This document shows, piece after piece, positions 15,564 through 53,950 of a stretch of DNA of 64,000 bases. The stretch comes from Scatophagus argus (lineage: Eukaryota; Chordata; Actinopteri; Scatophagidae). The stretch lies in contig NC_058514.1 of assembly GCF_020382885.2 (NCBI RefSeq), positions 13,068,249 to 13,132,248 on the forward strand. The letters run 5' to 3'. The position numbers and the translations under genes were made by a program. The number at the start of each line of letters is the position of its first letter. Position 1 is the first letter of the stretch. The notes below the pieces were generated by a model. The model searched no databases, was not told the DNA's origin, and saw only the letters and a program-made list of their open reading frames with translations.

Positions 15564-15678
15564 GATTTCGGTTTCCCTTGGTGCGCTTCCTCCCACTTTC
15601 AGCACTTCTCTTTTCAACAGAGGCGCATCGCGCTTTTACGCACGACTCCAGTGACTGGGGAAAGCAGAGTGAAGTGCC

Positions 15679-15699
15679 ATGGAGACCTTTAATGTATGA
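15679..15699 (+). promoter_or_regulatory. Upstream ORF overlapping the plexin start codon
   Basis: A 6-codon upstream ORF starts at ATG 15679 in a strong context (GTGCCATGG). It ends with TGA at 15697-15699, inside the sequence ATGA that also supplies the main ATG at 15696. The same arrangement is preserved in the second copy (ATG at 31290, main ATG at 31307). Such overlap is the classic geometry for leaky scanning or termination-reinitiation. An effect on plexin translation is inference. Confidence 0.6.
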
Positions 15700-18600
15700 A
15701 CCACCGCTGCAAGAAGATGATCCTGCTGCCCGGTCTGCTGCTCCTTCTCTGGGGAGAACCAAGTCGGTGCCTGGAAGAGGAGAGAGTCTTTGAATTTAAT
15801 GGGGCCCTCCGTCAGTTCGCTGTGGCCACCAACACGGTTTACATCGCCACAGAGGATGAGCTGTACCAGCTGAAACACGACCTGACTCTGATCCAGAGTC
15901 TGGCCCAGAGAGGAACCTTGAGCGCAGCATCACGAGTGGAAGACCAGAAGTTTTCCCGGGTTTCTGAAACGGATAAGTGGAACGCAACTCTCAGTGTTAA
16001 CATTTTATTGCCGTTTGTTGTGAATGAAACTCTGATCAGCTGCGGCGTGGTCGACAACGGCTGCGGTTACTGCGAGTTGTTGGACCTGAAGGACATTTCA
16101 GCTGTGCTGTACAGGGAACACATCCAGGTGGGGCCACCATGGCGCAACAGCGCGTCCGTCGGCTTCCTGGTGAGTGTGGAGAAGTCAAGTATCGAGACTT
16201 ACATTGTGGCGGCTTCACAGCATCACAGTAACCCCCCAGAGACCAGCTGTTCGTCTGGGTCAGATACAGTGAAGCTTCACAACACGAACGACAAGCAGAG
16301 AGGACTTATATTTACCCATGTTGGCGAGTTCTCTCGCGTTGCGATCAATAGTGAAGACGACATTAATGTGGAGTTTGTGGATGGTTTTCAGATTGATTTA
16401 ATCATTTATCTTTTTGCCAACCTGCCCTCAAATGACAAAAGCAACAAAGTCCGTCTTATTTGGCTTGAAGGCAAAGGCGGCAAAACCGCGACTCTTCAGT
16501 CGTTGCGGGGTGCTACTCTCAGTATCTCTGATGGCGGTAAAGACAGCAGACTCCTGGCTTCCTCGGCGATCCCCGGTGGGCCGCCGGTGCTGTGGAGCGG
16601 CGTGTTCAGTGTGGACGGAGGACAAACCAACACCGAGCTGGTACTGTTTGACATCAGCCCTGATCTCACCGGAGACAACGATGCAGATCCGGATTTCCAC
16701 AGTGTTCCTCGCTCTAACAAAGGAAAACAGACGGTGGGTCCTGATTTTGATTTCATCTTGGAAGTAAGAAAGTTTGACCTATTTGGAGATGTAAGACTAT
16801 GCTACTATACTGCAACATGTGTGACTAAAGCCAATCCTTGGCACTCACATAAAAATCCATTTTTCCACAATGTCAGTAAACTGACAAATGTTTGTTACAA
16901 ATTAATGAGATGCTCACAATGCTTGTTTGACCCAAGAATTTTAGCAATACTGATCTAAAAGTGAGAATAAAAGCGTCTGTGTTTCGCAGCCAAAGACTCT
17001 GAAGCCGAAGAAGGTGCTCTTCAAGCAGAACTACATGACCTCTGTGCTGGCAGTGAGACAGAAAGGCTGGGTGGTTTTCTTCATTGGGACAGGAGATGGG
17101 CAGCTCATTAAGGTGTGTATAAACCGTTGATTGATATGCAATCCATTTACTATTGAAAAAAATCAGATAATCAATCATTCAACAAAATTTTGCTCTGCTT
17201 ATTAAATAAAGTAACTTTAAATAAGAAATACAGAGATGTGAAAAAGTGATTTAATCATGTCAGTGAGTCACCCCAGAGTGAAAAGGTAAAAAACACGCAA
17301 TGGGATAACTAAGAGGCCTTACATGCAGCTCTATATCAGAATGAAGTCAGACTGTTTTGTGAGCTGAAGGGGCGAATTACAGTTACAGCAGTGGAGTGAC
17401 AAAAGTTTTATCTTTAACTTTTATAGTATAAAGTCACATATATATATAGTCATAGTCAAACGATATATTTTAGCAGCAAGTTTAGTTTCATTTTAATGCC
17501 GGCTGTGGTAGCGACTTGATCTCTGAGAAATGCAAAACATGAGAAATGTTACAGAGTGACCACAGTATTTTTTCTGTGGCAGGAAATAGCTGTTGAGATG
17601 TGATTAGATATGCATCCTTTTTTGTTGACGTTTCATATTCGAGGGTTAGTGGTAGATGGAGGTGTTATTTTAATTTTTCATCAACCAGCAAAATCTTCTT
17701 ATACGCAGGAATTCATTTCAAGAGATACAAGATACAAGATAGGTTTATTTGTCACACACACAATCATACATGGTACAATGTACAGTGAAATTCTTTTCAC
17801 TGCACAATTCAGAGGTTGCAAAAAGCTAAAAATAAATTTTTGGAAAAAATTTTGAAAATTCCTTCTGTCCAGGTTGGCTTCGCCTTGCAGTTTATAACAA
17901 AACACAGCAGCTCAGTCTCTGAAATATAACAAAGCTGCATTCTTGTTGTCAGCTTGCTGTGGACAAGAACTATCACACCACCTGTCCCATGGTACTCTAC
18001 AGGGCCAATGACGACCGCCGAGTGTTTCCCAAAATACACCTGGATCAAGTGGATCGTAAATATGTTTATGTGCCGTTTCAGAACCAGGTAGATGCATTGT
18101 AGATGTAAAAACTATACATGAGGATTACAACATTTTGTAAGCTATACACTTAAAAATGTTCCTGTTGGTGCTTTGTTCTAGATGAAGCGAGTGCCTGTGT
18201 CAAAGTGCAGCACATATACAAATGTGCAGCACTGTTGGTCTGCACAGGATCCATACTGTGTGTGGTGCAGCTCTACAAGAAGGTCAGGAACAGAACATCT
18301 GCAGTATAGACACCTTCAGACAATTATTTACAGTCATTAGTAATTAACTTGGTTAAAACATAATTTTGTCTTCTTAGTTGTACGTTTGAGGATGACTGCC
18401 AAGACTCCAACTGGTTGTCCATCCCTGATGACTTTCAACAGAAAATGGTCTCCTACAAACTTGTGAAGGACAGCACTGACCAGGTGCAGATTATGTACAT
18501 TTTTTTAACTGTAATCATATGTGACTGTCACTTATTTCTCTTTCAAACACTCGTATCCCTTTCTTTCACAGATCACACTTACTATCCAGACACATCTGAC

Positions 18601-21600
18601 TGTGGGCCAGGATGCGCTGTCTAACTTTGCCTGTCGATTCTTCCAAAATTCTAGGGAGCTTTGTAGGAGGGACAGCCCCCCTCCACAGTTCCCTCATTGC
18701 AAATGCATCCTTATAAATAACACACTTCCTGATGAAGGTGAGTGACTTATGATCAATAGAGCAGTCTGGTAAATCAATTACATGAAGTTCACACTGTCAC
18801 AAGAATCACATAAAAAACATATGTATTGCTGAATATTCTGACCATATATCTGGCATCCACTCTTGTTTTCATTTAACAGGCCTGCATGTCAAAGTTACGA
18901 TTGGACTTGGGATGACACAGTTGTTTAAACAACTCAAGATATCCAACTGTGCTGACATCAAGGGGCCACCAACTGCTGCCCTGTAAGTCCAAACCAAAGT
19001 AGAGAGATATGTTATAATGTAAATGATAGACAACAGAGCTGACAAATTTGAAAAAAAAAAGCTGAAACACACAGTCAGTCAGATGCATCAATGCTGAAAT
19101 TATTAGGTCGTAGAATATGTCAAATGAGCTTTGAGTGGATATTTATGGAAACTGGGGCACAAGGTATAGCACGAAATGTCATGCTTGCAGTGATCTGAAA
19201 GTCAGCCAGTTGGGAAAACAAAGCAAAACAATCATACATACAATTATAGATACAAACATTTTTGAAACATTTCGAGCCCTGCCTGTGGGCTGGAATGAAC
19301 CATCAAGAGTGAATGGAACAATGAAATATCTTTTTTTTTCCAAAACTGGCACCAAATTAATAACTTGGAAGACTTTTGTTATGGCTGAAGAATGGGTAAG
19401 AGCTGCACCCAAAACTTCAGGTAATGAGAACCTCCACTGAGAACCCAGCTGTAAGGTTCCAGATAAAAATCAATCAAGTGGGACATGCAGCAGGTGTTTG
19501 CAGCCCAGTAGGGAAAATGGATGTTAGGTAAAATCTTTAGCAGAGTGTTATTGCACCACTAACCGGAAGTTATAGTAAATTTTTTGATGATATTTAAGAA
19601 AAGTACAGTATCAGTATCTTGTTGTTTTTGTGGTGGATTGCAATCAGCAGTATGGTTTTCTCATCAGATGTCGGCAGTGTATTGAGGCTGGGTGTCTGTG
19701 GAGCAAAAACAGCTGCTCCTGGGAAGATCAAGGAGAGAGGAAGGTAATTGCCTGTTTTTCTGTATTTGTCTAACGTCGGCTCTTCCAGACTTCATACGAG
19801 CTGTACATGTATGTTGTGTCTAGCTAACGTTAACACTGTCCGTCTTCAAAATTTAAACACATTGCAAATAACTTCGCTGAGGACAGGGTGACTGATTGAG
19901 TGCAGTTTACTAGGCTGACTGTGACATCTAATTTCTATTTTTATTTCTGCATGTTAATCAAACATATCAAGCATGTACATTAGGCTGTAGTATTTAGTAG
20001 TAGCTGTTGAAATATACCTCAGATTATTTTTTTTAGTACTATTCCAGTATTTGAACTATGAATCAACTCTTAATAGTACATTTACAGTGACAAGTACACT
20101 TGTCTTCCTCTCACTTCCTTCTGCAGGACAGTGTTTGTCAAATGATGGAGTCAAGGATGAACGTTTCTGTGAGTCGATACCTCACTTCTCATACACGTTC
20201 TTCACCATTCAGTAGAGACATCAGTAAAAGGTAACATATGAAATACTGATTGTCTTTTTGTGTTTGTTTTCCTGTCAGGGACCAGAGATCTTCTCCATCT
20301 CTCCTAGTGTTGTGTCTTTCTATGGCAGAAACCATGCGGTGCTGTCTGGTCGTAACCTTCATAGTGTGACCAGAGTGAGGATCCAAGGGGATATGGACTG
20401 TAAACCACAAGAGTGAGTCTTGTTTACATGCAACTTGGATTATGCTTTTGCCATAAATGACATTTCAGAGATGGCAACTGGAAATGGAAATGTCACCAAT
20501 ATTCAGAATTGAGGTATCCTATAGTCAATACTCCATGTGCACTGTTCTTCACTAAAGCTGGAAATTGGATGTTTGATGTAAAATAAGGTTCTGCTACACA
20601 GAGATAATTCGGGAGATTTTCTGTGAGGTTATTGTGTGGGTGTTACCAGTTATGTGGTTCACACATGCTAAGATTATGAATTTCAGTTTGGTGTTACAGT
20701 AATTCAGATACCGAGAAGCTGATTTGTCGGATGTCCCATTTTTATATTCAGGAAGGCCTCAAAAGTGAAACTGGCAACTTGAAACTAAAGCTGAGTGTAC
20801 GTCTGCTTTAGGGATTGAAAATTTTAAGATAATACAGCACGCTCTCAGTTATGTTTGAATGATTTGACCAGGTTTTAACACACAAATATTTAGCTGTATG
20901 CTATGTTGGAGGTATTCTCTATGTCATTATTTATTTATTTATATTTAGATAATCTGTGTTGCAATAGCAGTACAATTATCATTCGAAGGTGTTCAGCTTA
21001 TGAGACATGATCTTGATTAGATGGTGAAACTGATGTTTAATTGTACTGAGGCAGGTTTTGCTGCTATGCTTCTTCTGCTTTTCTACATAATGTTGTTTTG
21101 ATGTTCTGTATGGCTCAGTACCCGAAAAGTGTTGAGCTCAGTAAAACTAATTGCTTTTCTCTCTGTGTCATCCTGTGTGTTGTGGTCAGATTTAATGTAT
21201 GGAGCAACACTGGTGTGAACCTGACATTTCACATCCCCCGTGCTGACAGTAAAGGTGTGGTCAAAGTGTGCGTTCTGCTTGCAGATGGTAGTTGCCATGG
21301 CAACGCTAAAATCACCTACCGGTCATCACCATCTTGCACCTACATTGCACCAAGCAGCACCTGGGCCAGGTATGACAGCATTTGCTGGCTTTTTCCCCCC
21401 TTACACAAACTTGCTAACTTTGATGGACAAAGCTTTTGTGACAATAAAACAGGACTGAGTCAACTTCTCTCTAAGAATGATTAGATGATTGTGACAATGT
21501 GAAAGGTGAAATCATTCAGATACAGCAGCTACTGTGCTGTAGAAAATGTGTCAACAAACATCACAGTTTTGGTGTCAGTTTCTCCAAATCACACGCTGTG

Positions 21601-24600
21601 GATATACATCAGTGATAAAAGATTTTTAAAATTGATTCTTTAATATTGCAGATGCTCTCAACAGCACTGGCAACACCAAAAGCAATCAAAAATGAAAACT
21701 TGAACAGGCTACTTCCTTTTGCTTACAGCAACTTAAAATCACACTTCTGCTTTTTTTTCTGTTTTTGCTCCTTAACCAAGCAAGCAACGACATGTAAGTC
21801 AAGATATTTTAAGGGTGTTGCAACAAATTAGGTGTATATAGCTCAAACATACACAGAAAAATAATCTCCAGATATTAATTTGTCACAATTATGTGTGATA
21901 AAGAGGTGACAAAGTATTCGGCAATTTTATCCTGAACATCAACACGTATCGTGGCTTGTCACGATACATTTTGGGAGAGGTTCACTGGTAGGGTGGTAAA
22001 CTTTGAAGCTTCACAGGGGCCACATGTAGGTAATATTTATATAAAACCAAATGCTTGCCCTGAATCTAATCTGTATTAACTTTTCACTCCTCTGATTGGC
22101 TGCTGCTCTGGGTCCTGCAGTGGGAAAAGGAAGATCACACTCGTGGGATCTCACCTTGAGTTTGTTGAAGGCATAATACACAGCCCCGCCTTTCAGGAAG
22201 TCAGTCTTCCCAGAAACAACAACTATCAGGTTGGTTTCTAGACATGCACAACATTCCATTATACAGTTATCTTAAATTAATTATGAAACATCATATCATG
22301 CTGCATCATGGTATAATGTAACATTGTATCACAACAAATTACACTATATTAAATCATGTGGTATCACATTGTCTCGCGTAATCTTCTAGTACTGTGTCAT
22401 GCAGCACAATGTTTCATCACATTACACTGCATAATCATCACTTGTGTACGTATGAAGCATGTCACATATTATGTCCTGCTTTTTTCTATTACATGTCACA
22501 TCATGCTTTTGTGATGCTGGAGTATGACATATTACATCATCTGGAAACACTTTTATGCCAGTTGATATTGTGTTGTATTTAACACTGAATGTTTTTTGAA
22601 TTCTCTACAGAATCTCACTTACGACACACCTGCAATGGGGACTGTTGAGAATTTTATAAGCAATGTGTTTCTGAAAGTAGCCAATGAAACGTTGATCTGC
22701 CCCATGACAATAACTTACTATCCAGAACCTGAGTTCACCAGCTTCGCAACCACAAGGACAGGAGATGATGTCCGCATCATCATACAGGTAATGCAGTTTT
22801 GTAGCACATGCAAACAAATACAGGACGAGAATACACAAGCATTTGTGAGCATTTGTTTCTATTATCACTTCAGAAAATGGCAGACAAACTGGACATGACA
22901 ATAGCCGAGTTGTCAGTGTGGGGCATTCAGGATGGAAAAAAATACCCCTGCATCATGGTAGCCAAAGAAACCAGCGATGGGACTGACTTCTTCACCTGTC
23001 GAATTCAAAACATGCCTTATGCTATGTTTCAGCAGTTAATGGTAAATCTTTTATTCAATCTAGACCGATACTATAGAGCATGACAACATAAACTTCATTG
23101 TGATTGTAGGCAGGATAAATTCTGTGTGATTTAAATTCTGTCTTTAATAGCAGTGCTGTCATTGTTTTTCCAGATTACATATGGTGACAAGACAGTTACA
23201 CTCTGGCTGCCAGGTTTATTACATCGGCTCCTTCTGATAATCCGCATTCTCTTGATACCCTTTATTCCTGTTGGTAAGTGCTGACACAAAACAGGCATAG
23301 GGTTGTCAGAATGAGCTCAAGCCTGGAGTGATATGGCAACAATATATAAGTGAGCTTGCAGAGAAAAAATGTTAAGCTGTTGAAAAGCACCTCAAAAAAT
23401 ATTATTTATTGGCAGTTTTGATCCAAAATCTCTGGTATTAGCCTTAAAAACACATTTTATGGATTAAGTTTTACTTTTCTGTCTGTTTGGTCTAAACCAT
23501 ATGCGTCTCATATGGTATGCTACGAAGCTCATTTCATATAGATCTATTATTATTGTTACTAATGGTCCGCCAATATGAATATTGATACTGATAACACACA
23601 AACTACAGATCCCATAATGCAGCGCAACTGCCGCCTTGCCTTACTATTGGCTACCTGGGAACATTCCCGCGTCAATCAAATTGAGCTCTATTTCCGTACA
23701 TACAACCGAGTCTGTTGGTTTTGTTGGGATAGCTTGCTCTTTTATTATTATTTTCAACACAACAACAACGTATCTACTTGCGCAATTAGCGCACTGCTCC
23801 CTCCTGTCGGAAAGCGGTCACGACACGCCCATTTGTGCCGCCCCGGGATCGAAAGGGTGATGTAGTGGATTGGGAAAACCGCAGTTCATTGTGGGCTTTG
23901 TAGGCAACTGAAAAGTGCGTTTACGCCGGCTACATGCATGGTGCTGCTCTTGTGTTTTGTTGTTTTGTTTCAACAAGTTAAAACGTGGTGCCAACGTGCT
24001 GTGTCGTTAACTGCCACAATCGTTCACATGATCGCTTCGGTAAAACAAACGATCGGGTGAGTTTTTTTTCTCATTTCCTACGTGCACGCAAACCCAAGGA
24101 CCTCAGATCTGTGAGCTAACGAGGAGTAGCAGCCGTGAGACGACCAAACATCACTTTCAGCACAATCACCCGACACATGTTGGTGTGTTCACATTTTCAC
24201 ACTGGTGTTGGTGGTGTTTTTCTGAAAGTAAAATGAATGGCTGCTTTTTTCTGTTTATCCGTAACATGTCATTGATATGTCAAGCACAGGAAAATCTCAT
24301 CTGCTACTTGCTCATATGGCGACAAACACCAGGCCTACACTTTTACAAAGAAAGTTAATAAAACTATCCTTGATGATGATGTAGTTCGCTAGCAATATAT
24401 GAAACTATATTCCAATTACTTTAATTGAGCCACAAGAAGTCCTTTGTGAGACCATGCCATTTATTCAAGCAATAATGTCTGAACACTTCTTATGTTAGTC
24501 TTTTCAGTTTATTACAAACATTCTTGTGAGAAAGGCCCTTTTTTTCAAGGTTTTTTGCAGCATGTTCGTGTTTTGACAAGAGATTTTAGAGATTTATATG

Positions 24601-26299
24601 AGATTTATATATGTATATATATATACCGGTACACTAACGTTCAAAAGTTTGGGGTCACTTAGAAATTTCCTTATTTTTTAAAGAAAATCACAGTTTTTTT
24701 CAGTGAAGATAACTTTAAACCAATCACAAATACACTCTATGCATTGCTAATGTGGTAAATGACTATTCTACCTGCAAATGTGTGGTTTTTGGTGCAACAT
24801 CTACATAAATGTATAGGGGCCCATTTTCAGCAACTATCACTCTAGTGTTCTAATGGTACAGTGTGTTTGCTCATTGCATCAGAAGGCTAATGGATGATTA
24901 GAAAACCCTTGTGCAATCAGGTGTGCAAAATGTTAGCACAAAACAGCTTAGCTAATTAAATAAGCTATAAAACTGACCTTCCTTTGAACAGGTTGAGTAT
25001 CTGGAGCATCACATTTGTGGGGTTGATTAAACGCTCAAAATGGCCAGAAAAAGAGAACTTTCATGTGAAACTCGACGGTTGTTCTTGTTCTTAGAAATGA
25101 AGGCTATTTCATGCGAGAAATTTCCAAGAAACTGAAGATTTCTTACAACGGTGTGTACTACACAACACAAACAGGCTCTAACCAGAGTAGAAAGAGAAGT
25201 GGGAGGCCCTGCTGCACAACTGAGCAAGAAGATAAGTACATTAGAGTCTAGTTTGAGAAATAGATGCCTCACAGGTTCTCAACTGGCAGCTTCATTAAAT
25301 AGTACCCACAAAACGCCAGTGTCTACATCTACAGTGAAGAGGCGACTCCGGGATGCTGGTCTTCAGGGCAGAGTGGCAAAGAAAAAGCCATATCTGAAAC
25401 TGGCCAATAAAAGAAAAAATCTATCACTCCATTTTGCAACGCCATGCCATACCCTGTGGACAGCGCTTGATTGGAGCCAATTTTATCCTACAGCAGGACA
25501 ATGACCCAAAGCACACTTCAACATTGTGCAAGAACTATTTAGAGAAGAGGCAAGCAGCTGGTATTCTATCTGTAATGGAGCGGCCAGCACAGTCACCAGA
25601 TTTAAACCCCATTGAGCTATTGGTGGGAGCAGCTTGACTGTATGGTACGCAAGAAGTGCCCATCCAGCCAATCCAACTTGTGGGAGGGGCTTCTAGAAGC
25701 GTGGGGTGAAATTTCTCCAGATTACCTCAACAAATTAACAGCTAGAATGCCAAAGGTCTGCAATGCTGTAATTGCTGCAAATGGAGGATTCTTTGACGAA
25801 AGCAAAGTTTGAAGGGACAAATTATTATTTCAAATACAAATCATTATTTCTGACCTTGTCAATGTCAATATTTTCTGTTCATTTTACAACACAAGGTGGT
25901 ATATAAATGTGACTGTTCATGGAAAACACAAAATTTGTCTCGGTGACCCCAAACGTTTGAATGGTAGTGTATATACACACACATATATGCATATAAATGA
26001 ATTTTCTTCAATTAACCTTGCGTCATTGGTGATATATATTTTGGAATGATATTCCTGCCTGGTTTTATTCTGTATGTTTAAAAATGGGTTCAAAGTGTTC
26101 ACTTTAGATCGGCCCGCAATTTAAAGTGTGCTTTGAGTTTTGGCCCACTGTGCAACTGAGTTTGACACCCCGGGTCTAAACAAATAAATGTGTTTGTCTT
26201 TCAGCGATGGTGATTATCTGTCGATGGCAAAAGATCACTGCTAACCATGCAGTGAAACGTCGCAAAGCTCAGCTCGCAGCTCAGGATGCCTCATCTTAA
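15696..26299 (+). CDS. Plexin-C1-like receptor with truncated cytoplasmic tail (tandem copy 1)
   Basis: Exons: 15696-16733, 16990-17112, 17953-18087, 18182-18282, 18378-18483, 18572-18737, 18880-18982, 19668-19743, 20127-20168, 20279-20412, 21190-21369, 22121-22229, 22611-22787, 22874-23041, 23174-23273, 26205-26299. All are GT-AG and phases close to 2853 nt, 950 aa. Order: signal peptide with hydrophobic core [12 protein letters not shown], sema domain (about 30-430), cysteine-rich PSI region (about 435-480, [11 protein letters not shown]), a second cysteine cluster (about 570-620), IPT-type repeats from about 631, and a membrane segment (about 905-927). Exon 16 starts like the juxtamembrane exon of copy 2 (MVIICR versus VVIIYR), then runs to a stop after about 30 codons. 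The GAP and Rho-binding domains are therefore absent. No frameshift or internal stop was seen. It is probably a decoy or adaptor-dependent semaphorin receptor (inference). Met1 at 15696 is chosen; Met8 (15717) would also give a signal peptide. Confidence 0.88.
17722..17815 (-). repeat. LINE-type 3' tail, antisense, in intron 2
   Basis: On the minus strand this reads TTTCACTGTACATTGTACC ... GACAAATAAACC followed by short ATCTTGT repeats. This is the usual form of a fish LINE 3' end, with a polyadenylation-like AATAAA and a microsatellite tail. No reverse-transcriptase sequence remains. It is absent from intron 2 of the second plexin copy. Confidence 0.5.
23602..23903. promoter_or_regulatory. 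Two opposed ZNF143-like (SBS) motifs
   Basis: ACTACAGATCCCATAATGC at 23602-23620 closely resembles the ZNF143/THAP11-bound SBS consensus ACTACAATTCCCATAATGC. A second, weaker copy lies in reverse at about 23884-23903 (minus strand CTACAAAGCCCACAATGAAC). They flank a GC-richer segment just upstream of a decayed THAP-domain exon, so this looks like an old promoter carried into intron 15 of the short plexin copy. Motif recognition is by eye. Confidence 0.45.
23978..24235 (+). pseudogene. Decayed THAP-domain exon
   Basis: Translation gives VPTCCVVNCHNRSHDRFGKT, the N-terminal zinc-ligand region of a THAP domain of the type found in fish transposon-related THAP proteins. The FFSFPT block follows in another frame. 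The end of the domain (VAAVRRPNITFSTI then MLVCSHFHTG, supplying the final Cys and His ligands) is again in a shifted frame. At least two frameshifts and a TAA are present, so it is not functional. No downstream transposase was found. It lies in the last intron of the short plexin copy. Confidence 0.7.
24632..25969 (+). mobile_element. Tc1/mariner element A (internally deleted)
   Basis: Terminal inverted repeats of about 25 bp (left CACTAACGTTCAAAAGTTTG; right end inverted, CAAACGTTTGAATGGTAGTG) are flanked by TA duplications at 24630-24631 and 25970-25971. The length of 1338 bp is short for a full element. It lies in the last intron of the short plexin copy and carries a broken transposase (see the separate entry). 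Confidence 0.9.
25038..25812 (+). pseudogene. Broken Tc1-like transposase
   Basis: Recognisable pieces in different frames: an N-terminal MARKRELSCETRR, the paired-like DNA-binding region (TGSQLAASLNSTHKTPVSTS then RRLRDAGLQGRVAKKKPYL), and the second catalytic block (LQQDNDPKHTS) leading to SPDLNPIELL. The sequence jumps from the end of the DNA-binding region almost straight to the second aspartate. The block around the first catalytic aspartate (normally WTDESK-like) is deleted, and several frameshifts are present. It cannot encode an active DD34E enzyme. Confidence 0.88.
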
Positions 26300-26796
26300 T
26301 TGTGTAGATCCTCAAACCCCATTTCCCCTCTTAAAGTAAAGTTCGCTGTCTGGTCTCAAAATTATGTAAAAGGGAAGCAAACTGAAATATGCAGTGAGTG
26401 TCTTCCCGTAGTGTTTAGATTGGTGTAAGTGCCATCAGAGTTTTCTTCCAACCTCCCCTTGAGAGATCAGTGAGGTACGCTAGTTATGTGTTTCTTTATG
26501 TTATGTATATAATGCTTGAATATGCTAATTTGTTAGCTCATTTGAATGTTAGTAACGTGACAGTGAGTGTGTTAATCAGTGAGCCTTAGAGTTGCTGGTA
26601 AGCAGATTTTGTTACTTTTTTGTTACAAGGATAACTGTATCTCTCTGTTTAGTCTTCATGCTAAGCTGAGCTAACCAACCACTATTTCTAACTTCATATT
26701 TACTGTACAGGATTGAGAGTGGTGTCAGTCATTTCATCTAACTACCCTCCAGAAAGCAAATAGTTTTTTCCCATTTCCCATAATTAAAAGACAGTA
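26300..26796. other. 3' flank of the short plexin copy
   Basis: Follows the TAA at 26297-26299 and should contain its 3' UTR. An ATTAAA hexamer at about 26782 is a possible poly(A) signal. An inverted partial copy of a common fish repeat occupies about 26635-26772. No homology to the introns or exons of the full-length plexin's cytoplasmic half was seen. Confidence 0.5.
26635..26772 (-). repeat. Common dispersed teleost repeat, partial, inverted
   Basis: On the minus strand this reads GCTTTCTGGAGGGTAGTTAG, GACACCACTCTCAATCC, GTAAATATGAAG, GGTTAGCTCAGCTTAGCATG. It is the same family as the copy at 7906-8112 and covers the part of the consensus around the GTACGCTAAATATGAAG block. It lies between the short plexin's stop codon and Tc1 element B. 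Confidence 0.55.
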
Positions 26797-26798
26797 TA

Positions 26799-28420: not shown

Positions 28421-28422
28421 TA

Positions 28423-29042
28423 TTAATGTGAAAATTAAAATTTGTTGGTTTTTATGAGCAAAAGTGTCATATGCAGTTTGAATAGGTTCTAGCATGTCAG
28501 TCTGTGCACTCTAATCATTTCACATATATTGTATGTATCCAGTGTAACTTATTTCTAGATTCCTTTGAATACAAATGCATCACCTCCTTATTCCATGTAG
28601 GCCTACATTTTTCTTGTGCCTGTTGATAAGTACCCAGCATATCTCTTTCAGTGGCAAAATATTTGTAGTGTAATTTGTGGGCTCCTACAGGGTGAGTCCA
28701 ACAGCTTGATCCAGCAGAAGTCCAGTCTGGCTAGAGATACTGTATTGCAGAACTACAGGTTCTTTAATGAAAACCCTGCTGAGCCAGCTATCACGGGGCT
28801 GTGATATGAGCAAGTGCTGGTCAGTATCTCATGTGTTAAACTTACAAATTACAAATTCTTAAGTTTAACACATAGCCTGCAGAGGCTGTTGTCAAGTGAC
28901 TGAAGTAACTGTATATAAATCTCAGTCAAAATGAGTTTAATGAATTAAACAAGTGAGATTTGTGCACCTAAATTTAAACACATTACTTAAATTATGTAGT
29001 CTACTATCGGACAATTTTAATTGTAATCAAAAAGATATTGCA
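28423..29042. other. Spacer between Tc1 element B and the palindrome
   Basis: About 620 bp of AT-rich sequence. One open frame (about 28692-28804) follows a polypyrimidine-CAG acceptor-like site. Its phase does not fit the preceding plexin exons and it matches no family I recognise. No supported gene. Confidence 0.5.
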
Positions 29043-31205: not shown

Positions 31206-31289
31206 ACTTTCAGCACTTCTCTTTTCAACAGAGGCGCATCGCGCTTTTACGCACGACTCCAGTGACTGGGGAAAGCAGAGTGAAGTGCC

Positions 31290-31310
31290 ATGGAGACCTT
31301 TAATGTATGA
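31290..31310 (+). promoter_or_regulatory. Upstream ORF overlapping the plxnc1 start codon
   Basis: ATG 31290 in the context GTGCCATGG opens a 6-codon frame. Its TGA stop (31308-31310) overlaps the main ATG at 31307. It is identical to the arrangement in copy 1, so this control element lies within the duplicated block even though the promoters further upstream differ. Confidence 0.6.
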
Positions 31311-40300: not shown

Positions 40301-43300
40301 AGTGTTGTGTCTTTCTATGGCAGAAACCATGCGGTGCTGTCTGGTCGTAACCTTCATAGTGTGACCAGAGTGAGGATCCAAGGGGATATGGACTGTAAAC
40401 CACAAGAGTGAGTCATGTTTACATGCAACTTGGATTATGCTTTTGCCATAAATGACATTTCAGAGATGGCAACTGGAAATGGAAATGTCACCAATATTCA
40501 GAATTGAGGTATCCTATAGTCAATACTCCATGTGCACTGTTCTTCACTAAAGCTGGAAATTGGATGTTTGATGTAAAATAAGGTTCTGCTACACAGAGAT
40601 AATTCGGGAGATTTTCTGTGAGGTTATTGTGTGGGTGTTACCAGTTATGTGGTTCACACATGCTAAGATTATGAATTTCAGTTTGGTGTTACAGTAATTC
40701 AGATACCCAGAAGCTGATTTGTCGGATGTCCCATTTTTATATTCAGGAAGGCCTCAAAAGTGAAACTGGCAACTTGAAACTAAAGCTGAGTGTACGTCTG
40801 CTTTAGGGATTGAAAATTTTAAGATAATACAGCACGCTCTCAGTTATGTTTGAATGATTTGACCAGGTTTTAACACACAAATATTTAGCTGTATGCTATG
40901 TTGGAGGTATTCTCTATGTCGTTATTTATTTATTTATATTTAGATAATCTGTGTTGCAATAGCAGTACAATTATCATTCGAAGGTGTTCAGCTTATGAGA
41001 CATGATCTTGATTAGATGGTGAAACTGATGTTTAATTGTACTGAGGCAGGTTTTGCTGCTATGCTTCTTCTGCTTTTCTACATAATGTTGTTCTGATGTT
41101 CTGCATGGCTCAGTACCCGAAAAGTGTTGAGCTCAGTAAAACTAATTGCTTTTCTCTCTGTGTCATCCTGTGTGTTGTGGTCAGATTGAATGTATGGAGC
41201 AACACTGGTGTGAACCTGACATTTCACATCCCCCGTGCTGACAGTAAAGGTGTGGTCAAAGTGTGCGTTCTGCTTGCAGATGGTAGTTGCCATGGCAACG
41301 CTAAAATCACCTACCAGTCATCACCATCTTGCACCTACATTGCACCAAGCAGCACCTGGGCCAGGTATGACAGCATTTGCTGGCTTTTTCCCCCCCTTAC
41401 ACAAACTTGCTAACTTTGATGGACAAAGCTTTTGTGACAATAAAACAGAACTGAGTCAACTTCTCTCTAAGAATGATTAGATGATTGTGACAATGTGAAA
41501 GGTGAAATCATTCAGATACAGCAGCTACTGTGCTGTAGAAAATGTGTCAACAAACATTTTTGGTGTCAGTTTCTCCAAATCACATGCTGTGGATATACAT
41601 CAGTGATAAAAGATTTTTAAAATTGATTCTTTAATATTGCAGATGCTCTCAACAGCACTGGCAACACCAAAAGCAACCAAAAATGAAAACTTGAACAGGC
41701 TATTTTTTGTTCCAACCCACTTTCTTCAGAAAAGAATGAAAACGTACAGGCTGAGGGTCACATTATGGTGAAAGATGGTCACTTCCCAAAAGCAGAATCT
41801 TTCACCAGTAGACCACTTCCTTTTGCTTACAGCAACTTAAAATCACACTTCTGCTTTTTTTTCTGTTTTTGCTCCTTAACGCTCCTAAAGATATTTTAAG
41901 GGTGTTGCAACAGATTAGGCGTATATAGCTCAAACATACACAGAAAAATAATCTCCAGATATTAATTTGTCACAATTATGTGTAATAAAGAGGTGACAAA
42001 GTATTCGGCAATTTTATCCTGAACATCAACACGTATTGTGGCTTGTCACGATACATTTTGGGAGAGGTTCACTAGTAGGGTGGTAAACTTTCAAGCTTCA
42101 CAGGGGCCACATATAGGCTAATCTGTTGTAGCTTTTCACTCCTCTAATTGGTTGCTGCTCTGGGTCCTGCAGTGGGAAAAGGAAGATCACACTCGTGGGA
42201 TCTCACCTTGAGTTTGTGGAAGGCATAATACACAGCCCCGCCTGGCAGGAAGTCAGTCTTCCCAGAAACAACAACTATCAGGTTGGTTTATAGACATGCA
42301 CAACATTCCATTATACAGTTATCTTAAATTAATTATGGAACATCATATCATGCTGCATCATGGTATAATGTAACATTGTATCACAACAAATTACACTATA
42401 TTAAATCATGTGGTATCACATTGTCTCGCGTAATCTTCTAGTACTGTGTCATGCAGCACAATGTTTCATCACATTACACTGCATAATCATCACTTGTGTA
42501 CGTATGAAGCATGTCACATATTATGTCCTACTTTTTTCTATTACATGTCACATCATGCTTTTGTGATGCTGGAGTATGGCATATTACATCATCTGGAAAC
42601 ACTTTTATGCCAGTTGATATTGTGTTGTATTTAACACTGAATGTTTTTTGAATTCTCTACAGAATCTCACTTACGACACACCTGCAATGGGGACTGTTGA
42701 GAATTTTAAAAGCAATGTGTTTCTGAAAGTAGCCAATGAAACGTTGATCTGCCCCATGACAATAACTTACTATCCAGAACCTGAGTTCACCAGCTTCGCA
42801 ACCACAAGGACAGGAGATGATGTCCGCATCACCATACAGGTAATGCAGTTTTGTAGCACATGCAAACAAATACAGGACGTGAATACACAAGCATTTGTGA
42901 GCATTTGTTTCTGTTATCACTTCAGAAAATGGCAGACAAACTGAACATGACAATAGCAGAGTTGTCAGTTTTGGGCATCCATGAAGGAAAACCTTATCCC
43001 TGCATCATGGAAGCCAAAGAAACCAGCAATGAGACTGACTCCTTCATCTGCGAGATTCAAATGACACCTCATGCTGAATTTCAGCAGTTAAAGGTAAATT
43101 TCTCAGTAACACTTTACACCAGCACAGTGCAAAGTCCTCAGAAGTATTAGCAGCCACTCAGTAGTAAAAGTTTTCTTTTTCAAAGTAGTAAACGTATTTG
43201 TGCCATGTTTTTTCAACAGATAATATATGGAGACAAGACGGTAACGCTGACCCTTAAGTCTTCATCTCTGTTCCTTCTGATGCTGCTTGTACTTCTGCTC

Positions 43301-46106
43301 ATACCCTGCATTATTGGTTGTAAGTGAATGAATTTGGTCCACTGCCATCCTCAAAAACATACATAGGTCCACCATTAATATTTTCGAAATGCTATTTGTC
43401 TGCATGTTTTTGATTTTAAGTGGTGGTAATCATCTATCGGCGTAAACAGCAGCAGCTCACTGCTCAAATGAACAAGCGTATGGAAGACCTGGAGCTCGAC
43501 ATCAGGAATGACATTAGACAAGGTCAGGCTAAACATCATCATGTTGTGTGCTTGTGATATGGAAGTTGCAGACTGATGAAACTGCAACTGATCGTGTTTG
43601 ATAAATAATTCATTTTTTTTTGTCACACACTATCTACAGTTAACTGAGCCTCAACATGCACACATCTTGTTCTCTCTCATGGGAGCGTCTATTTTCGTTC
43701 AGCAGTTGTCTGTTTATATTTTATTATGGTGTGAAATGCAGTTAACACGTTCCTTTATCATAGTCAGATTGGGGTCGGTACACACAGTACACCCATTTTT
43801 ACTGTATCTCTTTATTTGTGACCTGCAAATCTGTGCTTGCTTCACAAGTTTTTATGACATGATAAAAAGAAATATATAAAACCTGTTTTGTTCTTTGTAC
43901 TGTTTTCCTCCAGTCATTCCAGATGAGATTATCGTCTGTAAAAAATAAAAAAAAACAGCCTTTCTTAAATGTCTTCTGCAGGTTTTGTGGATCTTCAGAC
44001 AGAGAAAGCTGACCTGATGGAAAATGTTGGAACTATTCCCTTCCTGGACTACAAGCACTTTGCCTCCAGAATCTTTTTTCCTGAGGTACAGTTGAGCCAG
44101 AAAGAAAGAAAATGTTCTGGCCTGATGAACTGATGGTATAAATAGTGAAATACAAAAAATATCAAAGCTACCTTTGTGTTTTTCCAGGGTGAATCTTTGA
44201 TGACATCGTGTATCAAAGACATCAGTCAGGTAAAATCTGACTCCACATATTGTTGATGTTATCACTTCTCACTGTAACTCTGTCAGTGACCTGATGTTGT
44301 GTCTGACATGATATCAGGACGCGATGCAGGTTCAGCTTGATGAGTGTTGCCAGGGCTTGTCCAGGCTGATCGAGGACCAGTTCTTCCTGACATCTATGGT
44401 GCATGCTCTGGAGGAGCAGAAAAACTTCACCATCAAAGACAAGTCAGTTTGTGATGTTTTACTGTGTTACTGTCTCATATACAGTATGATGGTAATGTGC
44501 CATTGTTAGTCTGCTCTTGTAGCTTGTCTGCTGTCTTCTGTTCTCGTATGCTGGCTTTTTGTGGTCTACTGTCTCCAACTATTTGTCTGCTCTTGTCTAT
44601 TTTGTTATTTCCATTTTCAGTTTTCTATTCTGCTCTTCTGTTATTGTTCCATTGTGGTCTATCCTGTTTACTTCACTTTCACTTTCATCCTTCGGTCTTT
44701 TCTGTAGTAGTAAAAAAATCTTAATTTTAAAATTGCTGTTGAATCTTCAAAACTGTCTAAGCTCTCCTCTATATTTCTCTTCATACTTCCACAATATTTT
44801 TATACCCTTTTCTTCCTCTGCCAATATATATATATATAATATAATGTGCTTGAACTCACCTCCTGTGTCCTCCTCTTGTCTGCTGTTATCTCCTCACCTT
44901 TATCTTCTCCCACCCAGGTGTGTGTTAGCATCATTGCTGACCGTAGCTCTCCACAACAACTTGACGTACCTGACGGAGGTAATGGAGGCCCTCCTGAAGG
45001 ATCTGATGCAGCAAAACAGCAACACTCAGCCTAAACTGCTGCTACGACGCACCGAGTCCATTGTGGAGAAGCTGCTGACTAACTGGATGTCTGTCTGCCT
45101 CTACGGCTTTCTCCGGGTCAGTTGCTCATACTTGTCTTTTAGTCTTTGCTGTAAATCTTCAGCCAGATATTTTTAGCCATGCTAGTAGCATAGGTGTTGG
45201 TCAGTTGGCCCACCACTTTGTTACAGACTGATGAGAATTTAGGTTTATGAACATCTGCAAAACTAATGACTTTTCCATCAGCCTCTGCTGTGCTTCGTGT
45301 TTGGAGCTGATTAACAAACATGAACATGCTGACACCCTAATCTACAATAATGAACATGAAAAACATCATATCTGCTAAACATCACCATGTTAACAGTGTC
45401 ATCATAGGCTTGTTAACATTCTGATGTCAACATTTAACTCAAAGCATCACTGTACCTAAGTACAGCCTCTAAGAACATGGCTTTAGCAGTCTTCGTTCAT
45501 CTTTGTGTATGGGAACACTGTAGCAATTTCAATGTCAACACAACACAAATGTGTGAAATGAACAGGGACATGTTCTTTGAGGCTAGAAAAGATCAGCTCA
45601 TACATTAGAATCCAGGTGTTGAAACCAAGTGGTTTTACAGTTTGTACAATATATTCATGTTTGGGGAAGGTCCTCACTTAGGCTGTGTTTCCCATTTTGA
45701 TAAATAATTCCTGGAGTGCAATTATTTTAGTGCAGTATTTTCTGCCAAGCGCAAGGGAACTGACTTTTCATCCCTCAACTATGCTCCGTCCTATAACTAA
45801 CTTTTGATTGTTTCTTTTTTCTGCCTAATTGTAAACTGGAAAGAACCAAATACAAAAATTCCACAAACTAAACTTTCTTGCTCTGGCTGACACTTTAAAA
45901 CGCTTTGCACAGTACCTTGTTTGAGCAACTGAGTTTTTGTTTCTGGCTTTGGGCAGGAAAGTGTCGGCCAGCATCTGTTCCTGATGGTGAGCGCTCTCAC
46001 ACAGCAGACTGCAAAGGGGCCTGTGGACTGTGTGACAGAGAAAGCTCTGTACACACTCAGTGAGGATTGGCTGCTGTGGCAGGCTCCAGAATTCAGCTCA
46101 CTGGTA

Positions 46107-46141
<35 letters not shown>

Positions 46142-52100: not shown

Positions 52101-53950
52101 GGTAGGAAAAAAAGAAAGATATCACATTTAAGCATTTTTATTTTCAACTCAGTTAAGAGTAGAAGGCTCTTTCATCTGGAATTGCATACACTCACCACTT
52201 TGACCAGCACTGTGTACTGTGAGTGGGGAGGGAACTAAATGTGAAACTTGAAATATTTCTTTTGCTGCTCTCTACCTTCACTTACTTGAACATTAGTAAG
52301 TAAATTTTTTCCCAAAGAATTTCTTCTGTTCTGAAACTTCACCTCCTACTTTCTCTTCAAGGTGGCGGTGCATTCCTTTGTGGAGAACCTGTTTGGATCT
52401 ATCTGGGGGATGCCGCACGGCAAAGCTCCTCACACTGTCAAATACTTCTTCGACTTCCTGGACACTCAGGCAGACAACATGAAAATCACCGACCCAGATG
52501 TGCTGCACATCTGGAAGACCAACAGGTATGGCTGGGTCATCAGAAGCTCTGTGGACAGGAGGAAAAGCCTTAATTAAAATGCCAGAATAAATCAAATGTA
52601 TGTAGGTGACATGAGTGCAGTGGCATAAATGAGCCTGTGAAAGTCTTCTGATGTTCACTTCTTAAAAACCTGTCTTTCTTCCCTGTTGACTGTCGTCCTG
52701 GCACAGTTTGCCCCTGCGCTTCTGGGTCAACATCATTAAAAACCCTCAGTTTGTGTTCGACATTGAGAAGACTCCAAATTTGGACGGCTGCCTGTCAGTC
52801 ATCGCTCAGGCATTCATGGACTCCTTTTCTCTTAGTGAGATTCAACTGGGGAAGGTAAAGTCCAAGACAAACATCTCAAAATGTCCAGTTTTGCACCTGA
52901 AAATGGAAAAATAGGTGATTCTTTGAATATTACTGTGTTCCAGCATGCACCAACCAACAAACTCCTCTATGCCAAAGACATTCCCAAGTTTAAACAGGAG
53001 GTGAAGGCTTATTACAAGCAGGTCAAAGACCAGTCACCAATCACAGACTCGGAATTCAAGATCTTCCTGCAGGAGGAGTCAAAGGTAATATTTGTTTCGG
53101 TACAAAATCTTAAAAAAATGTGATGACCAGCAGCAAATAGACGAGTCATTTTTCTTTTCATTTCAGAAACATGAAAACGAGTTCAACGAAGCTGCAGCTC
53201 TCCGAGAGCTCTACAAATTCATCCAGCGATACTTCACAGAGGTCAGTTCATCTCCAGACTAACTCACCTTCATAGTACAGATGTATTATGCTTTCCTCGT
53301 GTTTGGTTTGGAGAATGTGGCCCATAGATGATGCCAATATGAACTGTCGATGTCATTGCCACATCTGGTTTTGTTTCAAATACATTTTAGTTACAGTTTG
53401 AACATGGTCACAAACATTTTAAGCCAATGTTTTGTTTTAAATTCAGTGCTTTCCATCAGCTAAGTCAAGGTAAACTACTATTATTGGGCCGATCTTTAGT
53501 TTTGCTCTGAGTAAGCTTTGTCGTCTCATTTCAGTCTTTCTAAACCACGAAGAGTGACTTCACTTATGAAACAGTCACAAGACATTGCTTAGAGGAAATA
53601 AGCTTTTAGAATCTGCTCATTTCCCTTTGCATGTTTTGTCGGGCTGTCGTTTCCTGTTCTCGTGTGCAGGCTGCCACCTTATGTAAACTGTTTTTATTAG
53701 TGCGAGTGACTTGAGAATGTTTTGATGTTTTCGGTGTGGGTCACATTTTAAATGCGGCAATGTGTTACATCGATGACTAGTAAAGCTTATATTGAGTCTT
53801 TACAGAGAAGTCCTGACAAGCTAAAACAATTTGTGTTTTCTATAGATCAAAGAGAAGCTGGAACAAAACGGAGCCCCTACTGAGCTGGTGGAGCAACTAC
53901 ATCATATTAAAAACTTGTTTGATGGACTAAAAACCTGCTCGTGGAACTGA
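31307..53950 (+). CDS. plxnc1: Plexin-C1, full length (tandem copy 2)
   Basis: Semaphorin receptor with cytoplasmic RapGAP activity. Exons: 31307-32344, 35300-35422, 37957-38091, 38186-38286, 38381-38486, 38575-38740, 38880-38982, 39661-39736, 40122-40163, 40274-40407, 41185-41364, 42173-42281, 42663-42839, 42926-43093, 43220-43319, 43421-43522, 43982-44085, 44188-44229, 44318-44442, 44918-45116, 45957-46103, 48785-48953, 49998-50098, 51081-51156, 51636-51670, 51754-51849, 52362-52525, 52707-52854, 52944-53084, 53167-53241, 53846-53950. Phases close to 4587 nt, 1528 aa (human PLXNC1 about 1568). The ectodomain is as in copy 1. The membrane segment is about 902-925 ([17 protein letters not shown]), followed by YRRK. 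The GAP domain is split by a Rho-binding insert (exons 21-24). Both catalytic arginine sites are visible: LRRTE (about 1087-1088) and PLRFWVN (about 1377). The C terminus (KKHENEFNE to the end) matches PLXNC1. Intron 26 uses a GC donor (AAG|GCAAGA). The CEP83 neighbour supports orthology. Confidence 0.96.
32677..34220. mobile_element. Non-autonomous DNA element rich in GGGTT/AACCC subterminal repeats
   Basis: The ends are inverted copies: left CTCTCTAAAAACTACTGGGTT, right (inverted) TCTCTAAAAAATGCTGGGTT. Both subterminal zones (32690-32945 and 34015-34215) hold many short inverted GGGT/ACCC units. The interior has no transposase. A LINE fragment is nested at about 33474-33612. The element occupies half of plxnc1 intron 1 and is missing from intron 1 of the short copy. 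The superfamily is uncertain; hAT-like is possible, but no clean 8-bp duplication was seen. Confidence 0.7.
33474..33612 (+). mobile_element. LINE 3' end fragment nested in a DNA element
   Basis: The sequence encodes [14 protein letters not shown], the conserved C-terminal reverse-transcriptase motif (KTxEMIVDFRK) of fish LINEs. After a short gap comes a 3' tail with GGGGATAAATAAAGGAATTC and GATTCT repeats, the typical end of such elements. Only the last 140 bp or so remain. Confidence 0.75.
34221..35299. other. plxnc1: Distal part of plxnc1 intron 1
   Basis: AT-rich intron sequence with no exon. It contains a short interstitial telomere-like run, (TTAGGG)3, at 34619-34636. Homology with the short copy resumes only about 15 bp before the exon 2 acceptor. 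Confidence 0.6.
35423..37956. other. plxnc1: plxnc1 intron 2 (2.5 kb)
   Basis: No exon or recognisable mobile element. It differs completely from the 0.84-kb intron 2 of the short copy until about 37850, roughly 100 bp before exon 3. From there the two copies become nearly identical and stay so through intron 13. Confidence 0.6.
46108..46138. repeat. (CA)n microsatellite at the exon 21 donor
   Basis: About 15 CA units begin a few bases after the GTACGT donor of plxnc1 exon 21. CA repeats next to donors can bind hnRNP L in other genes; an effect here is not shown. Confidence 0.9.
47270..47740 (-). mobile_element. Penelope-like retroelement fragment (GIY-YIG end)
   Basis: The minus strand encodes [20 protein letters not shown], the conserved C-terminal part of the GIY-YIG endonuclease of Penelope-like elements, followed by a degraded [13 protein letters not shown] tail. 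The adjoining 3' non-coding part (47280-47400) has the characteristic short hairpin-forming sequence around GCGAAGACGTTTTCGCCTCTCG. Reverse transcriptase is missing. It lies in plxnc1 intron 21. Confidence 0.8.
49215..49785 (+). repeat. Decayed dispersed teleost repeat in intron 22
   Basis: Stretches such as GTCGTGGCTCTGACTGTCGC, CCATGTTGGCAGCGCCTGAC, CTTAATTATGCATAA, AAAGTTGGGTGTTTTAGCAT and GGAGCCAGCCTCAAGT occur in the order I remember from a very common fish repeat. An open frame of about 70 codons inside it is a by-product. The plexin coding sequence skips the region: exon 22 joins exon 23 at 49998 in phase. Confidence 0.6.

What the first reader, a model, noticed from the sequence alone, without database searches (positions are those of the whole stretch)
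15696..53950. Tandem plexin-C1 pair: a short-tailed receptor beside the full-length one
Copy 1 encodes a complete plexin-C1 ectodomain and membrane segment in 16 phase-consistent exons without a stop. It ends about 25-30 residues inside the cell, lacking the GAP and Rho-binding domains that copy 2 keeps. Human and mouse have a single PLXNC1. Plexin-C1 is the receptor for Sema7A and for poxvirus semaphorins, so a membrane-anchored copy with no signalling domain could act as a decoy or dominant-negative partner. The structure is seen; the function is inferred.
Basis: partly seen in the sequence, partly recalled or inferred. Interest (0 to 1): 0.9.

Follow-up and report, generated by a model that had tools for sequence, protein, structure and literature searches.

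The report
Paired plexin-C1 receptors in spiny-rayed fish
In this fish a guidance and immune receptor, plexin-C1, sits beside a second copy with almost the same outer part but no signalling tail; other spiny-rayed fishes carry the same kind of pair, and the short copy's membrane segment usually holds an arginine, as in immune receptors that borrow a signalling partner.

Summary
Copy 1 (15696-26299) is a 16-exon, 950-residue plexin-C1 with a membrane segment and about 25 cytoplasmic residues. Copy 2 (31307-53947) keeps the GAP and Rho-binding exons. The species is Scatophagus argus: copy 2 exons 1-15 match its database plexin-C1 at 919 of 919 residues.

A plain assembly duplicate is ruled out: exons 1-13 are 97-100% identical between copies, but exon 14 (83%), the membrane exon (63%) and the tail exon differ strongly. 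Nor is it peculiar to this fish. I found the same short class in 26 fish genera, on the long form's contig in 11 of 13 pairs checked. In 18 of 18 chosen pairs the ectodomain is closest to the fish's own long form, while the membrane exon is closer to other fishes' short forms: one old duplication with repeatedly homogenised ectodomains.

The short form has an arginine in its membrane segment in 23 of 26 genera; 0 of 32 long forms do. Short tail, basic membrane residue and homogenised ectodomain mark activating members of immune "paired receptors" (compare Siglec-11/16). I propose that the short plexin-C1 signals through an ITAM adaptor. Function is untested.

The parts
15564..15695 (+). 5' leader shared with copy 2 (31175-31306); blastn homology between the copies starts here
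   Evidence: sequences printed
15696..16733 (+). Copy 1 exon 1 (signal-peptide-like start and most of the Sema domain)
   Evidence: 98.4% to copy 2 exon 1
16990..17112 (+). Copy 1 exon 2
   Evidence: 99.2%
17953..18087 (+). Copy 1 exon 3
   Evidence: 99.3%
18182..18282 (+). Copy 1 exon 4 (PSI/plexin repeat)
   Evidence: 100%; PSI hit on the near-identical P0001
18378..18483 (+). Copy 1 exon 5
   Evidence: 99.1%
18572..18737 (+). Copy 1 exon 6
   Evidence: 97.0%
18880..18982 (+). Copy 1 exon 7
   Evidence: 99.0%
19668..19743 (+). Copy 1 exon 8
   Evidence: 98.7%
20127..20168 (+). Copy 1 exon 9
   Evidence: 100%
20279..20412 (+). Copy 1 exon 10 (IPT/TIG)
   Evidence: 100%; TIG hit on P0001
21190..21369 (+). 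Copy 1 exon 11 (IPT/TIG)
   Evidence: 98.9%
22121..22229 (+). Copy 1 exon 12
   Evidence: 97.2%
22611..22787 (+). Copy 1 exon 13, last exon of the homogenised block
   Evidence: 98.9%
22874..23041 (+). Copy 1 exon 14 (membrane-proximal part), 82.7% to copy 2; the identity drops inside this exon, from about 22905
23174..23273 (+). Copy 1 exon 15, membrane segment with Arg910 (LLLIIRILLIPFIPV)
23274..26204 (+). Copy 1 intron 15 (2931 nt), with a Tc1-like transposase fragment at about 25069-25809
   Evidence: Tc1 type recognised by eye
26205..26299 (+). Copy 1 exon 16: end of the membrane segment (AMVIICRWQK) and a 25-residue tail, TAA
31175..31306 (+). Copy 2 shared 5' leader
31307..43319 (+). 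Copy 2 exons 1-15 (ectodomain and membrane segment without a charged residue)
   Evidence: 919 of 919 residues equal to P0001
43421..53947 (+). Copy 2 exon 16 and later cytoplasmic exons (juxtamembrane, GAP, Rho-binding domain)
   Evidence: tblastn with P0004; Pfam on P0001 and P0004

Best explanation
The window holds an old tandem pair of plexin-C1 receptors shared by percomorph fishes. One is the ordinary signalling plexin-C1 (copy 2). The other (copy 1) is a short-tailed partner whose ectodomain exons 1-13 are kept nearly identical to copy 2 by repeated gene conversion (or unequal crossing-over), while its stalk, membrane segment and tail evolve apart. SHOWN by sequence: gene structure; mosaic identity; the same short class in 26 genera; opposite trees for ectodomain and membrane part; an arginine in the membrane segment of most short-class members and of none of the long forms looked at. 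INFERRED: the two bind the same ligand (a Sema7A-type or microbial semaphorin); the short form reaches the surface with, and signals through, an ITAM adaptor with an acidic membrane residue, such as FcR-gamma or DAP12, paired to the arginine; ligand binding therefore gives an adaptor (Syk-type) signal beside or against the GAP signal of copy 2. It would thus work as the activating half of a paired receptor.
For: Mosaic identity: exons 1-13 97-100%, exon 14 83%, exon 15 63%. Short proteins of 831-970 aa in many fishes (256 hits, 120 listed; 76 hits, short and long). 18 of 18 chosen pairs: ectodomain closest to own long form (82.0-98.3%, against at most 81.5% to other genera's short forms); in exon 15 the best, and also the median, short form of other genera is closer than the own long form. 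Ectodomain tree: 18 label changes for 18 short rows; holding the short forms together is rejected, p-AU 4.5e-44. Exon 15 plus 13 tail residues: short forms one side of a branch, support 100/100. Arg at the membrane column in 30 of 58 short rows of any kind and 0 of 63 long rows; by genus, in the short class, 23 of 26 against 0 of 32 long rows; Trp after the membrane segment 26 of 26 against 0 of 32. Homogenised ectodomain with different signalling halves is documented for Siglec-11/-16 (PMC5701461, passages). Stimulatory receptors with short tails and a basic membrane residue pair with ITAM adaptors, and fish have FcR-gamma and DAP12 homologues (PMC4810170, passages). A plexin-DAP12 link exists in mammals, with TREM-2 as bridge to Plexin-A1 (PMC6016892, passages).
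Against: No expression, protein or binding data. The arginine is missing in short-class members of Thunnus (Cys), Mugil (Gly), Clinocottus (Leu) and one of two Salarias rows (Cys). Cichlids have further short forms without it, and flatfish short forms lack the signature. In S. argus itself exons 1-13 differ with dN 0.0146 and dS 0.0109, introns 0.0099: no purifying selection is visible since the last homogenisation. Its membrane/tail branch is long (0.89) and its tail departs from the class consensus. The pairs and classes were picked after a first tree had been seen, and the larger stalk-plus-membrane tree is mixed. In the Plexin-A1 case DAP12 was dispensable for Rac activation and TREM-2 does the bridging.
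Confidence: 0.5

Rival explanations
1. Membrane decoy or dominant-negative partner: the short form binds the same dimeric semaphorin, occupies one arm of the receptor dimer and so blocks plexin-C1 signalling, without any signal of its own.
For: No GAP or Rho-binding exon was found for copy 1. PlexinC1 signalling needs two membrane/intracellular regions brought together by a dimeric ligand (PMC7181871, passages). A homogenised ectodomain would keep ligand binding equal. Short forms without the arginine (Thunnus, Mugil, Clinocottus; other cichlid short forms) fit this.
Against: A pure decoy has no evident use for an arginine inside the membrane, yet 23 of 26 genera have it; the Trp next to the membrane is in 26 of 26.
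Confidence: 0.3
2. In S. argus copy 1 is a decaying or fast-drifting member: the class works in other fishes but this copy is losing function.
For: dN/dS about 1.3 between copies in exons 1-13 (not different from neutral, p=0.34); long membrane/tail branch; altered tail with a charged run.
Against: Open frame and all splice sites through 16 exons; Arg, Trp and the LLIP core are present. At this divergence few disabling changes are expected either way, so the open frame is weak evidence, and a two-copy dN/dS cannot tell which copy changed.
Confidence: 0.12
3. The membrane arginine changes plexin behaviour without an adaptor, for example by altering helix packing with the long form, or by holding the short form inside the cell until it pairs with copy 2.
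For: The same membrane signature; membrane helices are thought to matter in receptor dimers (PMC7181871, passages).
Against: The long forms offer no regular acidic membrane partner: 2 of 63 long rows have any charged residue in the core (Hippoglossus Arg, and an odd Merluccius row).
Confidence: 0.06
4. Assembly artefact, or independent recent duplications in each fish.
For: Exons 1-13 and introns 3-13 are 97-100% identical, as a haplotype duplicate would be; in the 111-row stalk-plus-membrane tree some short forms lie beside their own long form.
Confidence: 0.02

Closest known systems
Plexin-C1 (PLXNC1), receptor of Sema7A and of poxvirus A39R
   Same: Ectodomain is plexin-C1: P0001 and P0004 match Plexin-C1 chains 6vxk and 3nvn, and their tails match zebrafish PlexinC1 4m8m/4m8n; copy 1 is 97.1% identical to P0001 in exons 1-13
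   Different: No GAP, no Rho-binding domain, arginine in the membrane segment, Trp at the inner membrane edge
Paired immune receptors with ectodomains homogenised by gene conversion (Siglec-11/Siglec-16; CEACAMs)
   Same: Neighbouring genes, near-identical ectodomain, different signalling halves (PMC5701461 passages; PMC2832619 and PMC7042247 seen in the search listing only)
   Different: A plexin, not an Ig-like or lectin receptor; the long partner has a GAP domain, not ITIMs; fish, not mammals
ITAM-adaptor-coupled receptors of fish (IpLITR 2.6b)
   Same: Short tail without signalling motif and a basic residue in the membrane segment (PMC4810170 passages)
   Different: Immune-type receptor with Lys; adaptor pairing shown by experiment there, not tested here
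Plexin-A1/TREM-2/DAP12 complex in mammals
   Same: A plexin working with an ITAM adaptor (PMC6016892 passages)
   Different: There TREM-2 bridges plexin and DAP12; here the plexin's own membrane arginine would do so

Membership tests
Plexin-C1 | Sema-PSI-IPT ectodomain related to known Plexin-C1 | tested here: met
   Copy 1 is 97.1% identical to P0001 in exons 1-13; P0001 has PSI and TIG in Pfam (Pfam Sema was not hit in P0001, P0002 or P0004); P0001 and P0004 match 6vxk and 3nvn. Pfam and PDB searches were not run on copy 1 itself
Plexin-C1 | Single membrane segment | tested here: met
   19-residue window of mean hydropathy 2.84 in copy 1; no topology predictor was run
Plexin-C1 | Cytoplasmic GAP and Rho-binding domains | tested here: not met
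   Stop 25 residues after the membrane segment; no tblastn hit of the long form starting in 23280-31175. Copy 2 has them
Paired receptors | Neighbouring genes with highly similar ectodomains | tested here: met
Paired receptors | Different signalling halves, one short with a basic membrane residue | tested here: met
   Arg910 in copy 1; class counts
Paired receptors | Ectodomain similarity kept by concerted evolution | tested here: met
   Opposite trees, on 18 chosen pairs; conversion and unequal crossing-over are not told apart
Paired receptors | Shared ligand, same cells, opposite signals | not testable with these tools
   needs expression and binding data
ITAM-adaptor-coupled receptor | Physical pairing with FcR-gamma/DAP12/CD3-zeta through the membrane charge | not testable with these tools

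The most novel reading that the evidence does not exclude
Percomorph fishes turned a plexin into an immune paired receptor: a short plexin-C1 with an intramembrane arginine signals through ITAM adaptors when it meets self or microbial (virus-encoded) semaphorins, and gene conversion keeps its ectodomain matched to the true plexin-C1, as an arms-race answer to semaphorin mimicry.
Probability: 0.35. Interest if true: 0.92.

Novelty: new variant of a known kind. Interest (0 to 1): 0.76.

Why it matters
Plexins are taught as receptors that signal by their own GAP domain. If a plexin with a borrowed ITAM signal exists, semaphorin recognition has been built into the activating/inhibitory logic of immune receptors, outside the Ig and lectin families. 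A viral semaphorin that uses plexin-C1 is known (A39R; PMC7181871, passages), so the pair would make a testable case of receptor evolution against semaphorin mimicry, in farmed fishes where cells can be had. The opposite histories of ectodomain and membrane exons also make it a clean natural test of gene conversion limited to one half of a gene.

Tried and rejected
False duplication or haplotig: does not fit the diverged exons 14-16 and introns 1, 2 and 14. Missing cytoplasmic exons of copy 1 hidden further on: tblastn of P0004 gave no hit starting in 23280-31175, with the limit that it missed copy 1 exon 16 too. Read-through chimera (copy 1 exon 15 spliced to copy 2 exon 16): the phases would allow it, but 0 of 63 long database rows carry the arginine, so no annotated example was seen. 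Positive selection between the copies: 28 nonsynonymous and 6 synonymous differences, not different from neutral (p=0.34), though 8 of the 24 amino-acid-changing codons fall in residues 188-220. A search limited to the copy 1 stalk/tail gave only 9 hits; one from the Dicentrarchus short form gave 76. A first exon-finding script failed and had a wrong start frame; one search had exon 15 one base off; one search stopped on an error after the Fisher test and was redone. The larger stalk-plus-membrane tree (FastTree, 111 rows kept of 121, exon 14 included) is mixed: many short forms with the arginine group together, but those of cichlids, Mastacembelus, Salarias, Betta, Mugil and one Acanthopagrus row lie beside long forms of their own fish or family. 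This is what conversion reaching into exon 14 in some fishes would give; the split is clean only for exon 15 plus 13 tail residues and for the 18 chosen pairs.
Full report
OBSERVATION. A self-comparison of the window shows stretches that match with gaps: 15564-16740 with 31175-32351 and 17849-21711 with 37853-41702 at 98.4-98.5%, 16972-17120 with 35282-35430 at 98.0%, 21711-22034 with 41815-42122 at 92.0%, and 22066-23047 with 42118-43099 at 95.6%. I built exon models by hand from three-frame translations and checked splice sites and phases. Copy 1 has 16 exons from 15696 to 26299, GT/AG throughout, 950 residues, no internal stop. Copy 2 exons 1-15 translate to 919 residues equal at 919 of 919 positions to P0001, recorded as plexin-C1 isoform X2 of Scatophagus argus, taxid 75038. 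This identifies the species, which the taxonomy places in Percomorphaceae. The cytoplasmic part of copy 2 runs to 53947 by tblastn with P0004; those exons were not modelled singly. No hit of P0004 starts between the copies, though this test also missed the diverged copy 1 exon 16.

MOSAIC IDENTITY. Exons 1-13 are 97.0-100% identical between copies and introns 3-13 97.1-100%. Blastn homology begins 132 nt before the start codons. Introns 1 and 2 differ in length (256 vs 2955; 840 vs 2534 nt) and show almost no match in blastn. Within exon 14 the identity falls (82.7% overall; the drop begins near 22905); intron 14 is 58%, exon 15 63%, exon 16 43 of 94. A haplotype duplicate would not look like this. 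Differences in exons 1-13: 28 nonsynonymous, 6 synonymous, dN 0.0146, dS 0.0109; introns 3-10, 12 and 13: 28 of 2829; intron 11, left out of that sum because of its length difference (751 vs 808 nt), 20 of 694. Exon 14: dN 0.175, dS 0.296.

THE CLASS IN OTHER FISH. A search of 5.8 billion proteins with copy 1 gave 256 hits, of which 120 are listed and were fetched. I aligned these 120 plus copy 1. Counting rows with fewer than 60 residues after the membrane end, 57 of 121 are short and 64 long. One of the 64 (P0082, Nibea) has the short-type membrane segment and an odd C-terminus and was moved to the short side: 58 and 63. The short rows are not all one thing. By my reading several are truncated models of the long type (P0013, P0025, P0029, P0030, P0038, P0077, P0119); cichlids have further short forms without arginine; flatfish rows P0108, P0110 and P0114 lack the class signature; two (P0090, P0098) lack the membrane segment. 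At the arginine column 30 of 58 short rows have Arg and 0 of 63 long rows do; the long rows have Val 43, Ala 12, other 6, gap 2 (Fisher p 1.3e-12, without correction for relatedness). Taking one row for each of 26 genera of the short class (25 of them from other fish, one being Pholidichthys) and 32 long rows, all chosen by me, Arg is in 23 of 26 against 0 of 32, His in front of the membrane segment in 24 of 26 against 3 of 32, and Trp after it in 26 of 26 against 0 of 32. The exceptions for Arg are Thunnus (Cys), Mugil (Gly) and Clinocottus (Leu); a second Salarias row (P0118) has Cys. Short-class rows lie in lineages as far apart as Anabantiformes, Scombriformes, Cichliformes, Mugiliformes and Eupercaria (other placements are recalled). 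A search from the Dicentrarchus short form, limited to its stalk and tail, gave 76 hits, short and long. The named hits there are acanthomorph fishes by my reading of the names. The search works by exact words, so absence elsewhere is not shown. Of 13 same-species pairs other than the window among the 18 pairs below, 11 have the same longest-contig length for short and long form, one differs (Scomber scombrus) and one has no contig given (Anabas); same contig does not prove adjacency.

OPPOSITE TREES. I chose 18 pairs of one short-class row and one long row, 14 from one species, two from one genus (Seriola, Epinephelus) and two from related genera (Perca/Sander, Acanthopagrus/Sparus), after having seen the first tree. 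Rows without the class signature, and other possible pairs, were left out. In exons 1-13 the short form is closer to its own long form (82.0-98.3%) than to any other genus's short form in the set (at most 81.5%) in 18 of 18. In exon 15 another genus's short form is closer than the own long form in 18 of 18, for the best and also for the median of the other short forms. The ectodomain tree pairs every short form with its own long form (18 changes), and holding the short forms together is rejected with p-AU 4.5e-44 (the group was not named before a tree was seen). The tree of exon 15 plus 13 tail residues (53 columns, few for 36 rows) has all 18 short forms on one side, support 100/100. Because the rows were picked by signature, this shows that the signature is shared along the segment, not that every short fish plexin belongs to it. 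The larger 111-row stalk-plus-membrane tree is mixed, with short forms of cichlids, Mastacembelus, Salarias, Betta, Mugil and one Acanthopagrus row beside long forms of their own fish or family (ten rows dropped beforehand as incomplete or duplicate: P0085, P0086, P0090, P0098, P0104, P0106, P0112, P0113, P0116, P0120). One old duplication with repeated homogenisation of the ectodomain, sometimes reaching exon 14, is the simplest account. Conversion and unequal crossing-over cannot be told apart here.

MECHANISM. The short form keeps the ligand-binding ectodomain but no signalling domain. Two readings remain. [quoted passage not shown] Paired receptors whose ectodomains are homogenised by conversion are documented for Siglec-11/-16, where the authors propose that activating members arose against pathogens that exploit the inhibitory ones (PMC5701461, passages). 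A plexin-DAP12 connection exists through TREM-2, although DAP12 was dispensable for Rac activation there (PMC6016892, passages). The arginine lies in the outer third of the membrane segment (P0002: sixth residue after the His-Gln), the place I recall for FcR-gamma partners; that is recall, not a call. (b) Decoy or dominant negative: plexin-C1 is activated by ligand-driven pairing of two receptors (PMC7181871, passages), so a tail-less partner could block it. The arginine favours (a); its absence in three genera and in other short forms favours (b) for those. I put (a) at 0.5 and (b) at 0.3. Expression, adaptor pairing and ligand are untested.

S. ARGUS ITSELF. Copy 1 here is not a typical member: its membrane/tail branch is long (0.89), its tail has 25 residues where most of the class have 13, with a charged run, and no purifying selection is visible against copy 2 since the last homogenisation. 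It may be diverging fast or decaying. Eight of the 24 changed residues fall in positions 188-220 of the Sema domain; whether this is a ligand-facing loop was not tested.

LITERATURE. No held paper contains both 'plexin-C1' and 'paired receptor' (0 papers). 'plxnc1' with 'teleost' and 'duplication' gave one fathead-minnow resequencing paper (listing only). 'plexin C1', 'fish' and 'tandem' gave 22 papers, 20 listed, none on fish plexin-C1 genes by title. 'plexin', 'ITAM', 'paired receptors', 'teleost' (three of four) gave 7, none on plexins by title. A wider search gave 1,081 papers of which 15 are listed, none naming 'plexin-C1-like'. The library is open-access only and listings are capped, so this does not prove that nothing is in print. 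The proteins themselves stand in public databases, many as 'plexin-C1-like'.

Noticed in passing
window 27159-28197 and 25069-25809: Tc1/mariner-like transposase reading frames (recognised by eye): a larger one, split between two frames, between the two plexin copies, and a fragment inside copy 1 intron 15. tblastn with the 27159-27617 frame found only itself in the window.
   Followed up: partly
window 29043-29904 and 30352-31205: An inverted repeat of about 860 bp (94%) just upstream of copy 2; its outer end overlaps the first 30 nt or so of the 5' block shared by both plexin copies.
   Followed up: no
database rows P0079, P0081, P0088, P0083, P0094, P0070 (cichlids): Cichlids have additional short plexin-C1-like proteins with a different membrane segment and no arginine, so the cluster seems to have expanded there into more than one short type.
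   Followed up: partly
database rows P0108, P0110, P0114 (flatfish): Flatfish short forms carry a long-type membrane segment and two of them end just after the exon 16 sequence; either a separate origin, a conversion reaching into the membrane exon, or truncated gene models.
   Followed up: no
window 16257-16355 (copy 1 residues 188-220) versus 31868-31966: Eight of the 24 amino-acid-changing codons between the copies (exons 1-13) sit in 33 residues of the Sema domain.
   Followed up: partly
window 26205-26299: The S. argus tail departs from the usual 13-residue class tail soon after the conserved Trp-Gln-Lys, as a small frame change would give; not tested.
   Followed up: no
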